64,000 bases of DNA, from contig NZ_PYLQ01000002.1 of the NCBI RefSeq assembly GCF_003024685.1, positions 137,062 to 201,061 of the forward strand, read 5' to 3'. The notes under the pieces are model-generated. The model made no database searches, was not told the DNA's origin, and saw only the letters and a list, made by a program, of their open reading frames with translations. Both the position numbers and the translations under genes were made by a program. Positions 22,140 through 44,478 of the stretch are shown here, in pieces (the stretch's first letter is position 1; every line of letters starts with the position of its first letter). This DNA is from Faecalibacillus intestinalis. Its GTDB lineage: Bacteria > Bacillota_I > Bacilli_A > Erysipelotrichales > Coprobacillaceae.

Positions 22140-22448
22140 ATGAATACATTAAAAATACAAATTAAACCTTTTTATAAAAATAATCCTTTTCATCTAAAAG
22201 ATGATCAAATACATATCCTATCTACAAATAAAAATGAAGAAGAAATAAAACAGCTCCTCTTACAAATGAATTATGAAAATTATTCTATTTTCATTCAACT
22301 TGAATTAGAAAATTATAACTATGGTTATCTCTTTATAGATCATAAAGAATATGAACTTTATTATTATAATGATTTTGATGATTATGAAGATGAAATTGAA
22401 TTTGCCAGCAAAAACTGGATAAAAATGATAAAAAATAGTGAGGGGTAA
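22140..22448 (+). CDS. hypothetical protein
   Basis: 102 residues, start at 22140 after GAGGTGG. Rich in Asn, Tyr and acidic residues (DHKEYELYYYNDFDDYEDEIEF), no signal or membrane segment. I do not recognise a family. It sits 1 nt before a second small gene and the pair likely forms one transcript. Confidence 0.6.
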   Translation: MNTLKIQIKPFYKNNPFHLKDDQIHILSTNKNEEEIKQLLLQMNYENYSIFIQLELENYNYGYLFIDHKEYELYYYNDFDDYEDEIEFASKNWIKMIKNSEG

Positions 22449-22449
22449 T

Positions 22450-22653
22450 ATGAAAAAAATAAATGAAACACAAAGAAAAATAATTCATATGCTTAAGGAT
22501 TTTGGTATTGATCATATTAGTATGGCTGGCATTCTAGGAACTTTAGAACAAGATAATCTAAATGAAAATGATTTTTTAGACTTTATTAAAAACAAAGAAA
22601 CACTTTCTATTAAGGACTGTACTGAACAAATATGGCATATGAGAGGATATTAA
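22450..22653 (+). CDS. hypothetical 67-residue protein
   Basis: Starts 22450 with GAGGGG just upstream. Predicted helical; the segment ILGTLEQDNLNENDFLDFI resembles small EF-hand-free regulatory proteins but no family is assigned. Ends directly at a strong terminator, supporting a real gene. Confidence 0.6.
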   Translation: MKKINETQRKIIHMLKDFGIDHISMAGILGTLEQDNLNENDFLDFIKNKETLSIKDCTEQIWHMRGY

Positions 22654-22678
22654 AAACAAGCGTATGAGGCTTGTTTTT
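22652..22678 (+). terminator. intrinsic terminator
   Basis: AAAAACAAGC / GCTTGTTTTT with a 7-nt loop right after the stop codon. Confidence 0.85.
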
Positions 22679-22722
22679 AATCTATATTATTCACGCGCGC
22701 TCTTATCATTATCATATTGATC

Positions 22723-25660
22723 TTATTCATCCTTATCTAACGTTAACAACTCCGATGCAACATCAACGGATTTTAATCTAATTAAATTATCATAAATATC
22801 TGGTCTACCTAATAAATTAATTCCCCCATGCCATACAATTTCTTGGTCAATAATAGCATAATGATTATCTAGGTTTTCACATAATTCAACAATTATACCT
22901 GCCAATTTTAAATGATATATTAAGTAATTTGCATAATCAGGATTATCAAACTGCAAATTATTAGGATCTCTTGTAATAACAATGACCGTAACTCCTTTTT
23001 CTTGTTTATTCTTCACCAAATCAATGAATTCAAATATTTTCTTTTCATCTAATTGTGGACTACATACAATTATTTCCTTATTTGACTCATGAATGTCCTG
23101 AGCAAATATTTCAGAGTAATCATTATAATTATAAATATGATGAGCTTCTTGTTTATTATTCACTACATTTGTAATAACGTCGAAACCAATTTTTCTATAA
23201 GCTCTTAGCCTCTTTTTATACATATTGTTAAAAAAGCTAATATGTAAATCTACATAATCATATACGATAGCACTTTCCTTAAATTCATAATCTCTATTAA
23301 TTCTTCCTAAAAATTGTTCTACTAATGGTTCTCCTGAAACTGGTGTTGTAAGAAAAAGTGTATCTAATCTTGGAACATTAAACCCTTCACCTACAGATTG
23401 TGAAGTAGCAACCAAAATAAACGATTCATTTTGGTTTATTTCTAACAATTGTTTTCTTACTTCGTTATTTTTCTTTTGAGTATTATCACCATAAATCAAG
23501 AAAGTATTATCAAGCACATCTTTCTTTAAAACATCATATAAATATTTAGCGTGTTCCTTATAACGAATTAAAACAATAGGACTTCTTTTATTTTTAATAC
23601 ATTCTTTTATTTTTAATACATTCTTTTATATCTGAAATTATCATTTCATTTCTAATTGTACTTTTTGCTATTAATGAATACGCACTATTTATATCTTGTT
23701 TACTATCACCTAAATTAATAACTCGTGTAAATCGCGGATAAATAAAATGATCAATGTTTTGTTGTTCTATCCTTTGTCTACTTGTGAATTGATGTCTTAT
23801 AGATCCTATCAACATATAAACTTTCTTTTCTAATTGATCGATTCTCTTATCATTTGCTGAAACACCATAAACGTATTTTGAATTCACTTTATTTAATACA
23901 TTTTCAAATACAGATGATGCACTATGATGGCATTCATCAACTATCACCATACCATAAGAATCTTTTAACTTACTTTTTCCATTTTTATCGTAAATTGAAT
24001 TGACAGATACAACATCTATTATCCCAGTTAACGTGTTTTTATTTCCATAAAGAACCCCTATAACATCATTCCTTGTTTTAATTATTCCCGTTTTAGTTTG
24101 ATAGGTTGGTAATTCTTCATTTATATCTAAAAATTTATGTAACTCTTCTACCCATTGATTAATTAAACTAACACTTTGCATAACAATCAATGTACTTACT
24201 TTTCTTTTTGAAATAAGGTAACTTGCAACAACCGTTTTTCCAAACGCTGTTGTTGCATTTAAAATACCATTATCATATTTTAATAATTCATTTGCTGCTG
24301 TATTCTGATTATCTTTTAATTGTCCTTTAAATTCTACATTGACTGGTTTTCCTCTTTCTCTTTTATCAATAATCTCATATGGAATGTTTGCCTGTGAGCA
24401 CTTATCACTAATCTTTTCCATTAATCCTCTAGGAATTTTAATATAGTCATTAATATCACTTCCCATATAAACAACCATTGGTTGATTCCAATTCGAGTAC
24501 CCTAATCTATTATTCTTATAAAATATTGGATTATCAAAAGCAACTAAACTCCTTATTTGATTTTGAATTCTAGGGCTTAAATTCAAAGTATCAATATAAA
24601 TACCATCAGCAAGCACAATTGTCATTTTTTCTACAACATCTTCTTTATAAAAAGGCTCATCTTTTTTCCATGGCTTAATTCTCGCTTCTCGATTAGGATT
24701 TATCAATAATCCTTTACCTTCTGCTAATTCGATCTTCCATTTATCAATATACCTTTCAACATCTTTTTTGGTTAATCTATTAATTTTATTAAGAACCAAC
24801 CATTGATCATAATAAGCATTCCAATTTTCATCAACAAAAGCACTATTACCATTTTTTAACGCTTTACCTTGTAATGGAAGTGCTATAACATTTCCAAGCC
24901 CTTGATTATGATCTTGTGTAGGAAACATTCGATCATAATATCTAAATGATTTTAAGTTAATTGATGCAGCTCCTTTTTCTATTAGTAAATAGCCAAAGTC
25001 TCTTGCTAAAGATGCTGATATAAATTCTTTGAATACTATCCAAGCATGTGCCCCATTTCCAGAACGAGACCTTTCTATTAAAACATCAATATTACTTTCT
25101 TCACAAATTTTTCTTAACGCATTTACTTCATCTTTCCAATCATTATTATCTATACTCTCTTCATCATGATTATCAAAATCAAAAACAATAAACTTACATG
25201 TATCATTTTCTAAAAGAGGATAAATACCTATTACATCTGTGCAATTATCTTTATGACCAAGCAAATGATTTAATCCTACATTTCTGTTTAATTCTTTCCA
25301 TTGCTTATACGGACAATCTGTACATGATGTTTTTACATTGTTTTGTTTAGGACACATACTATTCCATCTATTATTACATTGCGGAAAATAACCACCTCGT
25401 GAACCTCTTAATGCATAGACGTCTCTCCTACCTTGAAATATTGTTAAAAAAATAGCAGCCATTTCACCTGTAATATATTGATCTTTTATACAAGCACCTT
25501 GATCTTCATTATATTCAGTTAAATTATTTGTTATATTATTTGTTTGTTCATCAAATATTATATTTGATTTTTTTAATAATTCTTTTAATTTGTTATTTTC
25601 TTCTTGTAAATCCCTTATTTTTTTCCTCAATGTTTCTAAGTTATATCCTGTAATATTCAT
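22723..25660 (-). pseudogene. TOTE-type primase-helicase-PLD protein, split by a 19-bp duplication
   Basis: Removing one copy of a 19-bp tandem repeat at 23586-23623 restores one 972-residue frame. Domain order: coiled N-terminus; Cys cluster (CNNRWNSMCPK, CTDCPYKQ, about 95-125); archaeo-eukaryotic primase-like domain with DxD in FDFDNHD (about 160) and RSRSGNGAHAW (about 200); SF2 helicase with Walker A TTAFGKTVVA (about 470), DECHH (about 573) and GRINRDYE; C-terminal phospholipase-D-like segment (NHYAIID). I name it from memory of the TOTE conflict-system family, thought to act in defence or element conflict. As it stands the gene gives a 688-residue product and an unlinked C-terminal piece. 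Confidence 0.85.
23586..23623. repeat. 19-bp tandem duplication
   Basis: Two perfect adjacent copies of TTTTATTTTTAATACATTC. Since 19 is not a multiple of 3, the duplication breaks the helicase frame after IKNKR; one copy reads on as SPIVLIRYKEHAKYL. Confidence 0.95.
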
Positions 25661-25764
25661 AGAAGAATCTCCTTAAACAATTTATTACATATATTTTACA
25701 ATGTATCAAATAATAAATATATAAAAAGAGAATACTAATTTTGTATTCCCTTTAAAAATTTTTT

Positions 25765-25879
25765 ATCTCGGTGGTCATCTCGGTGGTCATCTCGGTGGTC
25801 ATCTCGGTGGTCATCTCGGTGGTCATCTCGGTGGTCATCTCGGTGGTCATCTCGGTGGTCATCTCGGTGGTCATCTCGG
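25765..25879. repeat. 12-bp minisatellite, nine copies plus a part
   Basis: ATCTCGGTGGTC repeated nine times without error from 25765 to 25872, plus 7 bases. On the minus strand it reads (Met-Thr-Thr-Glu)9 then IKNF and stop at 25752. That frame is the same as that of the AlbA_2 gene beyond its stop codon. Far higher G+C than its surroundings. Confidence 0.95.
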
Positions 25880-25913
25880 GTATATTATAAAATTATTTTT
25901 TTATAATATACCC
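25878..25913 (-). repeat. 15-bp hairpin around the AlbA_2 stop codon
   Basis: GGGTATATTATAAAA / TTTTATAATATACCC with a 6-nt loop that contains the TAA stop. It could act as a terminator or RNA 3' end, but no T-run follows; the minisatellite follows instead. Confidence 0.75.
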
Positions 25914-27290
25914 ACCATTTCTGGTTGTTCCTTCATATTCAATTATTTCCTTTTTTCTTAATCCTTTAATAGCAGTTTCTATACTACTCTTTTTTAATGT
26001 CAACATTTCTGAAATTTGTTTTGCATTTAATCCTGGATGACTAGATATAATACCATAAACCAATAATTGTTTTTCAGGTAAAGTAGTTGGGTCAAAAATA
26101 GTATTCCTATTTTCTTCGATTCTTGCTTTTCTAGAAACAATACTGTTTTCTAGTGTTAATAAAACTGACGAAGAATTAGGCTCTGTGTATATTGGATCTT
26201 TTAGAAATGATTCCTGCATTTCATCATATATACGCTTTACTCCTTCATTTAATTCTTTAACATAGCCAAATTCTGTTAACACCCTTGCAATTCGAGGATT
26301 TCTAGAATATCTAGTATATTTCATATTTTCAAGTGTCACTATATTTGGTAATTTCCCTGGACTAAAAATTTCTAAATGATCATCATATAATGAAATTCTA
26401 ATGCAATCTCCTTGTAATGAATAATTTCTATGTGTTATCGCATTAACAATTCCTTCAAACCATGGAAATTCAGGATATTCTGGAATTGTTTTAAATACAC
26501 CATCTTCTGCTAAATATTGAAAATCTCTTAATTGAGAATGCATTTCTCTCTTTATATCTTCTATAATTCTAGGAATAGCATTTTCATAATTAATTTCTTT
26601 AATAATATTTAACCTTTTCCCTGTCTCCATTCTATTTCCTTCAAACTTTAATAATCTAACACGTGCATTAGGCAAATACTTTGTAGGAAATTTTCCAAAC
26701 AATAATATACCAGCATAGGTTAAATGCCCTTTTTTCATAAGTGCCCTTGCTTCAAGAATTTCTTCTAATGATAAATTAGTATTTAAAATTTCTTTATATT
26801 TAGAAAGCAACTTGATATCAACATCTTCAAATGTAGATTCTTCTACTACTAGGTCCTCGAATCTTCTTTCACCTTTATCATATTCTAATTGAATTATTTG
26901 CTCATGATTCAATAATTTAGATTTATCACCAACTCTTAAATACACTTTGGAATCCTTAGTTTTTATCACATAATTTTCACTAGGTTCTATTTCAAACAAA
27001 AGAACTTTTTTATTTTTTATCACTCTTTCTTCATAATTAATTTTTACGTTTCCATCAACTAAGTAAGGTGCCTCTAAAAATTCATTTACTTTATGTGCAT
27101 TCATACCATCAAATCCAGTGATTTCGCCATTATCTTCTATACCAATAGCTAAAACTCCACCATTTGCATTTGCAAAGGCAACAATATGTCTAAGTATATC
27201 TGCTGGTTTTATTCTTGCACTTTTACGATCAAAATACTGATTTTCTTCACTTTCAATAAGATATTGATTAGTAATATTTTTTATTATCAT
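25893..27290 (-). CDS. AlbA_2/Schlafen-type ATP-binding protein with winged helix
   Basis: 465 residues. N-terminal AlbA_2 domain (YFDRKSARIKPADILRHIVAFANANGGVLAIGIED), central divergent-AAA region ending in a GHKL-like ATPase segment (AITHRNYSLQGDCIRISLYDDHLEIFSPG), and C-terminal winged helix (HPGLNAKQISEMLTLKKSSIETAI). Such proteins are linked to transcription control or nucleic-acid processing and often lie in accessory regions. It is upstream of, and on the same strand as, the TOTE gene, 232 nt away across the minisatellite. Confidence 0.85.
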   Translation of the reverse strand: MIIKNITNQYLIESEENQYFDRKSARIKPADILRHIVAFANANGGVLAIGIEDNGEITGFDGMNAHKVNEFLEAPYLVDGNVKINYEERVIKNKKVLLFEIEPSENYVIKTKDSKVYLRVGDKSKLLNHEQIIQLEYDKGERRFEDLVVEESTFEDVDIKLLSKYKEILNTNLSLEEILEARALMKKGHLTYAGILLFGKFPTKYLPNARVRLLKFEGNRMETGKRLNIIKEINYENAIPRIIEDIKREMHSQLRDFQYLAEDGVFKTIPEYPEFPWFEGIVNAITHRNYSLQGDCIRISLYDDHLEIFSPGKLPNIVTLENMKYTRYSRNPRIARVLTEFGYVKELNEGVKRIYDEMQESFLKDPIYTEPNSSSVLLTLENSIVSRKARIEENRNTIFDPTTLPEKQLLVYGIISSHPGLNAKQISEMLTLKKSSIETAIKGLRKKEIIEYEGTTRNGGYIIKK

Positions 27291-27445
27291 TCCTAAAGCT
27301 CCTTTCTTAAAAAAAGATTATATATTGATACCCTATTTTACCATTGTACAGTATTAATTTCATTGCTTTTTATTCTAAAAATTATAATTATATTTTTTCA
27401 CATTTAATAATATTCATTCTATAAAATTTTATTTATTACAAATTA

Positions 27446-30990: not shown

Positions 30991-31007
30991 CAAAAAATTC
31001 GTTATCA

Positions 31008-31173
31008 ATGATAGCTCCCCATTACCTTTAGATAATGACAGTTGAATAGGTCTTTCCTAGACACCCAAGATTATACCTCATGCAATAGATACAATCTTTC
31101 GGCAAGTGCTCCTCCTTCATTACCTTGTTGCATCAAATAATAATAATCTCATAACATCTTGCGCCTCTATCTT
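31008..31173 (-). promoter_or_regulatory. lysine riboswitch (L box)
   Basis: The minus strand shows the conserved pieces in order: GATAGAGGCGC, GAAGGAGGAGCACTTGCCGA, TTGGGTGTCTAGGAAAGACC and GGGGAGCTATC closing P1. It leads a DAP/lysine operon, as expected. Confidence 0.95.
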
Positions 31174-31184
31174 TATTTGAGTAA

Positions 31185-43596: not shown

Positions 43597-43684
43597 TTTA
43601 ATCATTTTTCTTCTTATTTTTACATATTTTTAGTATATTAACAAATCAATTTATATTATTCATTAAATATGTTAATATTTCATT
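43597..43684 (+). promoter_or_regulatory. CRISPR leader
   Basis: A+T-rich 88-bp stretch without reading frame between the inverted repeat and the first repeat. The array is on the same strand as cas, and the worn repeat lies at the far end, so this is the leader side. TTAACA and TATATT-like boxes are present but not well spaced. Confidence 0.6.
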
Positions 43685-44390
43685 GTTAGATATCATACTT
43701 ATTAAGGATTAACGCTCATCATATATAAGTTGTTCGTTAATTACCTTGTTTTCGTTAGATATCATACTTATTAAGGATTAACGCCATATAAAGCCCCTGC
43801 AAATCCTATACTTGCTAAAATTGTTAGATATCATACTTATTAAGGATTAACGCTTATGCCCCTTTCTCAATTCTTTCTTGATTTGTTCTAGTTAGATATC
43901 ATACTTATTAAGGATTAACGCTGTTGCTAATAATATTTCCTTATTTAAGTTTGCTTCGTTAGATATCATACTTATTAAGGATTAACGCATTATCGGCGCT
44001 TGATTGTACTTTTCTTAATTTCTTTTGTTAGATATCATACTTATTAAGGATTAACGCTATTTTTACTTTTCATATATTCATACTCTTTTTCTTTGTTAGA
44101 TATCATACTTATTAAGGATTGACGCAATTTCTATTGAGCCGTCGAATTCATCAATAACTTCAGTTAGATATCATACTTATTAAGGATTAACGCACTGGTT
44201 CAAGAGCTTGTTTTAATTTACTTATTGTTCGTTAGATATCATACTTATTAAGGATTAACGCCAATTTTATTTTCATCTCAGATGTTTCTCCTTACATTCG
44301 TTAGATATCATACTTATTAAGGATTAACGCTCACCATCATTGACTAGCTGCTTTACTTCTTCTAGCGGTTAGATATCATACTTATTAAGG
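43685..44390 (+). CRISPR. type III-A CRISPR array: 11 repeats, 10 spacers
   Basis: The 31-nt repeat begins GTTAGATATCATACTT and ends GGATTAACGC. Repeats start at 43685, 43754, 43823, 43891, 43958, 44027, 44095, 44163, 44231, 44300 and 44368. Spacers are 36-38 nt. The repeat at 44095 has one A-to-G change near its end (GGATTGACGC). The last repeat is intact only for 23 nt. Spacers are all different. Orientation is inferred from leader side, cas direction and the worn 3' repeat. Confidence 0.98.
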
Positions 44391-44478
44391 CTTATTTTTA
44401 TTTCTATCTAATAATGAAAAAACTATATTTTATGTTCTTCTTTTAGTACAATGAAGTTATAAGAAAAAGGAGAAAAGT

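What the first reader, a model, noticed from the sequence alone, without database searches (positions are those of the whole stretch)
22723..25660. TOTE-type primase-helicase-PLD gene switched off by a perfect 19-bp tandem duplication
Everything else in the 972-codon frame is open and motif-complete. Loss of one copy by slippage or recombination would restore it, so this may be a reversible on/off state of a conflict protein rather than simple decay.
Basis: partly seen in the sequence, partly recalled or inferred. Interest (0 to 1): 0.65.

Follow-up and report, generated by a model that had tools for sequence, protein, structure and literature searches.

The report
TOTE gene broken by tandem duplication
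A bacterial gene for a large primase-helicase protein, thought to act in conflicts with foreign DNA, has been cut in two by a recent 19-base stutter in its sequence; it looks like an ordinary young mutation, and nothing yet shows that it is an on/off switch.

Summary
A perfect period-19 tandem array (23583-23629; 28 bases match at offset 19) lies in the only TOTE gene of this genome, on the minus strand at 22723-25660. It shifts the frame between the two helicase lobes: AEP primase plus first lobe (688 aa, 25660-23594), then second lobe plus PLD-like domain in another frame (23625-22723). Homologues from other genera, up to 70% identical, carry the segment once. No dinucleotide shuffle of the window gave a comparable array. 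Both halves are otherwise intact and equally constrained, so the break is young.

The unit is bounded by a 9-base direct repeat, so one slippage event explains it. Homologues have no repeat tract there, same-genus genomes lack the gene, and one genome of the species is held; reversibility, rate and benefit are untested. A published Bordetella pertussis case (30-bp duplication, lost under selection, return not seen) shows such lesions can be lost; that is revertible decay, not phase variation. 'Motif-complete' is also wrong for the PLD part: the canonical HxK is missing here and in 12 homologues.

Verdict: a real, recent loss-of-function allele; low to moderate interest.

The parts
22723..25660 (-). 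TOTE-type AEP primase / SF2 helicase / PLD-like gene, interrupted by a frameshift
   Evidence: Pfam hits in both pieces; intact homologues of 892-1012 aa
23594..25660 (-). First open frame, 688 aa: AEP-TOTE (residues 68-303) and first helicase lobe (ResIII 447-602)
22723..23625 (-). Second open frame (300 codons plus stop): second helicase lobe and PLD-like domain; first ATG/GTG/TTG in frame is a GTG at 23517
23583..23629 (.). Perfect tandem array, unit 19 bp, 2.47 copies; one extra unit relative to homologues, unit bounded by the 9-base word TTCTTTTAT
25725..25753 (-). Terminator-like hairpin between the upstream SLFN gene and the TOTE gene, suggesting separate transcription
   Evidence: consensus match only
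25765..25879 (.). Separate perfect array of ATCTCGGTGGTC, 9.6 copies, upstream of the TOTE gene (neighbour, not part of the break)

Best explanation
This is a young loss-of-function allele of a chromosomal TOTE gene. During replication the strands misaligned at a 9-base direct repeat lying 19 bases apart in an A/T-rich, lysine-rich stretch, and the 19-base unit was copied twice. Because 19 is not a multiple of three, translation leaves the frame at the start of the second helicase lobe and stops inside the array. The cell should make, at most, a 688-aa primase plus half-helicase, without a complete helicase and without the PLD-like domain, so the system is most likely off in this genome. Two perfect adjacent copies can in principle be lost by slippage, so the lesion is young and revertible, but it is an accident and not an evolved switch. 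Shown: the array, the frame shift, its absence in homologues, the intact remainder. Inferred: the slippage origin, loss of function, revertibility.
For: Period-19 run of 28 bases against at most 13 in 30 shuffles. At this segment 13 of 14 homologous loci displayed read through in one frame without the extra unit; the 14th, L015, was printed in a wrong frame by my script but aligns intact. In L003 (70% aa identity) the hits of the two pieces overlap by 27 nt, against 8 nt in the window: 19 nt extra. dN/dS against the G019 homologue is 0.196 for the first piece and 0.138 for the second, aa identity 0.699 and 0.693, with no further stop in either. The 9-base word TTCTTTTAT recurs at spacings 19 and 38. 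Most relatives are intact: 11 of the 13 family genomes with a match at E<=1e-40, out of 43 searched, have a frame of at least 895 aa. Broken copies elsewhere arise by other changes: G036 (three frames, no tandem array), G493 (three stops).
Against: No reads, no second isolate and no expression data were available, so 'accident' rather than 'switch' rests on the absence of a conserved tract and on one genome. The gene's perfect remainder also fits a switch observed in its off state. Two of the three perfect arrays on the 294-kb contig lie 2.1 kb apart, which hints at locally raised slippage.
Confidence: 0.75

Rival explanations
1. Reversible on/off state: cells gain and lose the unit often enough that a subpopulation keeps a working TOTE gene, a bet-hedge against foreign DNA.
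For: Perfect copies with 28 bases of homology at offset 19; both halves intact and constrained. A 30-bp inactivating tandem duplication in B. pertussis is lost under selection and the gene works again (PMC8546581, passages seen).
Against: In that precedent the way back was not seen. The tract is not conserved in homologues. Same-genus genomes have no TOTE gene to compare. The review's criteria, reversible switching in both directions and a rate detectable without selection, are untested.
Confidence: 0.1
2. Assembly or sequencing artefact: the real chromosome carries the unit once.
For: The genome is a draft in 53 contigs; no reads could be examined.
Against: The array is 47 bp, far shorter than usual reads, lies inside a 293,905-base contig, and no similar perfect 19-bp-class duplication occurs elsewhere on that contig.
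Confidence: 0.07
3. The gene is still functional: ribosomes shift frame at the array, or the two frames give two cooperating polypeptides.
For: The frames overlap by about 30 nt (23594-23625), and the second frame has a GTG at 23517.
Against: A +1 shift would be needed (frame arithmetic on the coordinates); I saw no known +1 site by eye, and the longest A run there is five. The first start codon of the second frame lies about 77 nt beyond the stop, inside the second helicase lobe. Nearly all homologues are single chains.
Confidence: 0.05

Closest known systems
TOTE conflict-system AEP proteins (Pfam PF22548 AEP-TOTE with SF2 helicase and PLD-like domain)
   Same: Domain order and length after allowing for the break; nearest intact copy 70% identical over 686 residues
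   Different: Broken by the 19-bp duplication; PLD-like domain without canonical HxK, but so are 12 aligned homologues
B. pertussis BP3410 manganese exporter inactivated by a 30-bp tandem duplication (PMC8546581)
   Same: A perfect short tandem duplication within a coding region, absent from nearly all homologues, in an otherwise intact gene
   Different: There 30 bp (a multiple of three), found in about 98% of strains, and loss shown under manganese; here 19 bp, frame-breaking, one genome, loss not shown
Simple-sequence-repeat phase variation (review PMC11868660)
   Same: Slippage between repeats could change the frame
   Different: Two copies of a 19-mer rather than a long tract of short units; tract not conserved; no switching shown

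Membership tests
TOTE AEP-helicase-PLD proteins | AEP-TOTE primase domain (PF22548) | tested here: met
   253.1 bits, cut-off 27
TOTE AEP-helicase-PLD proteins | Both lobes of an SF2 helicase in one chain | tested here: not met
   ResIII/DEAD in the first frame, Helicase_C in the other; one chain in the intact homologues. The gene is a broken member by descent, not a working one as read
TOTE AEP-helicase-PLD proteins | C-terminal PLD-like domain | tested here: met
   PLDc_2 29.8 bits, cut-off 27
TOTE AEP-helicase-PLD proteins | Canonical HxKx4D nuclease motif in the PLD-like domain (claimed by 'motif-complete') | tested here: not met
   Missing in the window and in 12 of 12 homologues aligned; so not a defining trait of this branch; motif recalled
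Phase-variable locus (criteria of PMC11868660) | Switching mediated by variation at a single locus | tested here: inconclusive
   Only one allele is held; same-genus genomes lack the gene
Phase-variable locus (criteria of PMC11868660) | Reversible switching in both directions | not testable with these tools
   Needs cultures or reads
Phase-variable locus (criteria of PMC11868660) | Rate detectable without selection | not testable with these tools
   Needs cultures or deep reads
Phase-variable locus (my added expectation) | Repeat tract conserved at the place in relatives | tested here: not met
   No such tract in the homologues
Gene inactivated by a revertible short tandem duplication (BP3410 type) | Perfect tandem copy absent from homologues, remainder intact | tested here: met
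Gene inactivated by a revertible short tandem duplication (BP3410 type) | Spontaneous loss with return of function | not testable with these tools
   Needs the isolate

The most novel reading that the evidence does not exclude
The locus is a slippage-controlled defence gene: a low-frequency subpopulation keeps a single-copy working TOTE allele that rises under attack by phages or plasmids, while most cells carry the off allele to avoid self-damage; the 12-bp array 2.1 kb away would mark the same locally slippage-prone islet.
Probability: 0.08. Interest if true: 0.6.

Novelty: new member of a known kind. Interest (0 to 1): 0.25.

Why it matters
If only decay, it is one more young pseudogene of a patchily distributed conflict gene, useful as an example of how such genes are lost. 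If loss of the unit occurs at a useful rate, it would show that costly defence genes can be parked in a revertible off state, as one published metal exporter is, without a classical repeat tract.

Tried and rejected
Searches for close relatives in named collections gave little: genome contigs returned only distant helicase matches and viral contigs none. TOTE-like proteins exist on plasmids (90 of 154 matching records cover at least 80% of the query, all under 60% identity), while 0 of 718 matching phage records cover 80% of it.

A functional pairing with the neighbouring SLFN/AlbA_2 gene was considered and dropped: its best relatives in G020 and G014 lie away from their TOTE genes, and a terminator-like hairpin lies between the two genes.

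A frequent duplication mode in TOTE genes was considered and dropped: 34 loci scanned (22, 12; they include broken, partial and non-TOTE ones) held no comparable array. L016 has a 12-bp unit outside the matched stretch; L047 has a 10-bp unit with a run of 11, whose coding status I did not check. L059 (G177, 540 aa) looks like a different architecture and was not counted as a broken TOTE gene. G047 (L012) lies against a contig end. The weak matches of G471 and G047 (below the cut-off) were left out of my counts.

Literature: 'TOTE conflict' and TOTE with primase, helicase and Aravind found 0 papers each, so the family's published description is recalled only. Searches gave listings; of these only three papers were opened: passages of PMC8546581, passages and section 6 of PMC11868660, passages of PMC7824862 (no TOTE). 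No claim of absence from print is made.

No structure was predicted: the domain boundaries already place the break.

Full report
What is there. The array at 23583-23629 is real and perfect: 28 successive bases equal the base 19 further on, and Tandem Repeats Finder gives period 19, 2.5 copies, 100% match. In 30 dinucleotide shuffles of the window the longest comparable run was 13. On the whole contig, 293,905 bases, only three perfect arrays with unit of 10 or more and run of 13 or more were found: a 13-bp one, this one, and the 12-bp array at 25765-25879. It is therefore not one of many repeat-built switches on this contig; the rest of the genome was not scanned.

What it does to the gene. 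On the minus strand one frame runs from 25660 to 23594 (688 aa) and holds AEP-TOTE (residues 68-303) and the first helicase lobe (ResIII 447-602). The second frame is open from 23625 to 22726 and holds Helicase_C and PLDc_2. The break falls at the start of the second lobe. By sequence the first lobe is nearest to XPB-type helicases (XPBII, 6p4f, 6.3e-13), the primase part to 7nqf (2.9e-9), and the second lobe to UvsW (2oca, 7e-5) among solved structures.

Duplication or ancestral sequence? It is a duplication in this genome. Fifteen of 60 genomes searched, own included, held a match with E below 1e-50. At the place of the array, 13 of the 14 homologous loci that I displayed read through in one frame without the extra unit; L015 was printed in a wrong frame by my script but is aligned intact. 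In L003, 70% identical, the two window pieces hit the homologue with a 27-nt overlap, while in the window they overlap by 8 nt, a difference of 19. The unit is bounded by the 9-base word TTCTTTTAT, recurring at spacings 19 and 38, the usual setting for a slippage duplication (inference).

How old? Against the G019 homologue the first piece has dN/dS 0.196 and 69.9% aa identity; the second, which should no longer be translated, has 0.138 and 69.3%. No further stop or shift exists in either. Synonymous sites are near saturation (dS 1.1 and 1.6), so this argues against long neutral decay but cannot date the event.

How common are broken copies? In the family, 13 of 43 genomes match at E<=1e-40 and 11 of these 13 have a frame of at least 895 aa; the others are the window (692) and G036 (619). 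In a phylum sample, 21 of 392 genomes exceed the Pfam cut-off and 19 of these 21 have frames of at least 867 aa; the others are the window and G493 (341 aa, three stops). G036 is broken across three frames without any tandem array. Three of the seven Acinetobacter rows listed (H6-H8) match in two pieces and carry no annotated gene there; one of them (H6) differs from an intact relative (H3) by two mismatches and one single-base indel over 7.8 kb. Breaks of this gene therefore occur repeatedly and by different routes, which fits ordinary loss.

Surroundings. The five same-genus genomes lack the gene. In G003 and G004 the DNA left of it (up to about 22429 and 22401) lies on other contigs than the lysA side (from about 27426 and 27440), so TOTE and SLFN stand in a variable junction. 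Genes are gained and lost here, which again fits turnover (inference).

Interpretation. A slippage accident in a patchily distributed conflict gene explains everything seen. Loss of the extra copy is plausible: in B. pertussis a 30-bp tandem duplication inactivates a manganese exporter, is lost under manganese stress with return of function, and the return to two copies was not seen (PMC8546581, passages). The review of phase variation demands a single locus, switching both ways, and a rate detectable without selection, and gives the group A streptococcal mga tract as one that cannot be so classed without evidence of spontaneous reversion (PMC11868660, section 6). The present locus has none of these shown. 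I therefore call it a young, possibly revertible, loss-of-function allele (0.75), and keep a true switch at about 0.1.

Limits. One genome per species is held, so no second allele was seen; reads, expression and phenotype were out of reach. The TOTE name and its role in conflict come from Pfam's label; no paper on it was found.

Noticed in passing
25765-25912: Perfect 12-bp array (ATCTCGGTGGTC x9.6) beside an A/T-rich hairpin (GGGTATATTATAAAA / TTTTATAATATACCC). G003 and G004 carry the hairpin next to lysA with about two 12-bp units and with 11-bp units respectively; the hairpin arms differ by paired changes. Function unknown; unit length and copy number vary between sister species.
   Followed up: partly
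22430-27425: Variable junction: left and right flanks lie on different contigs in G003 and G004, and each genome has different genes beside the lysA hairpin.
   Followed up: partly
25893-27290: Intact SLFN_AlbA_2 / HATPase_c_4 gene whose last codons form one arm of the hairpin; PADLOC labels it with a pAgo model (1.1e-44), probably a shared-domain effect.
   Followed up: partly
43677-44394: CRISPR-like array, repeat GTTAGATATCATACTTATTAAGGATTAACGC with spacing near 67; neighbouring genes not identified.
   Followed up: no
31004-31177: Lysine riboswitch ahead of the dap/lysA genes (gene names by eye).
   Followed up: no
L119 and L120 (Acinetobacter towneri plasmids): A plasmid TOTE-type helicase intact in one plasmid and split by a single-base indel in a near-identical one; could be real or a sequencing error.
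   Followed up: partly
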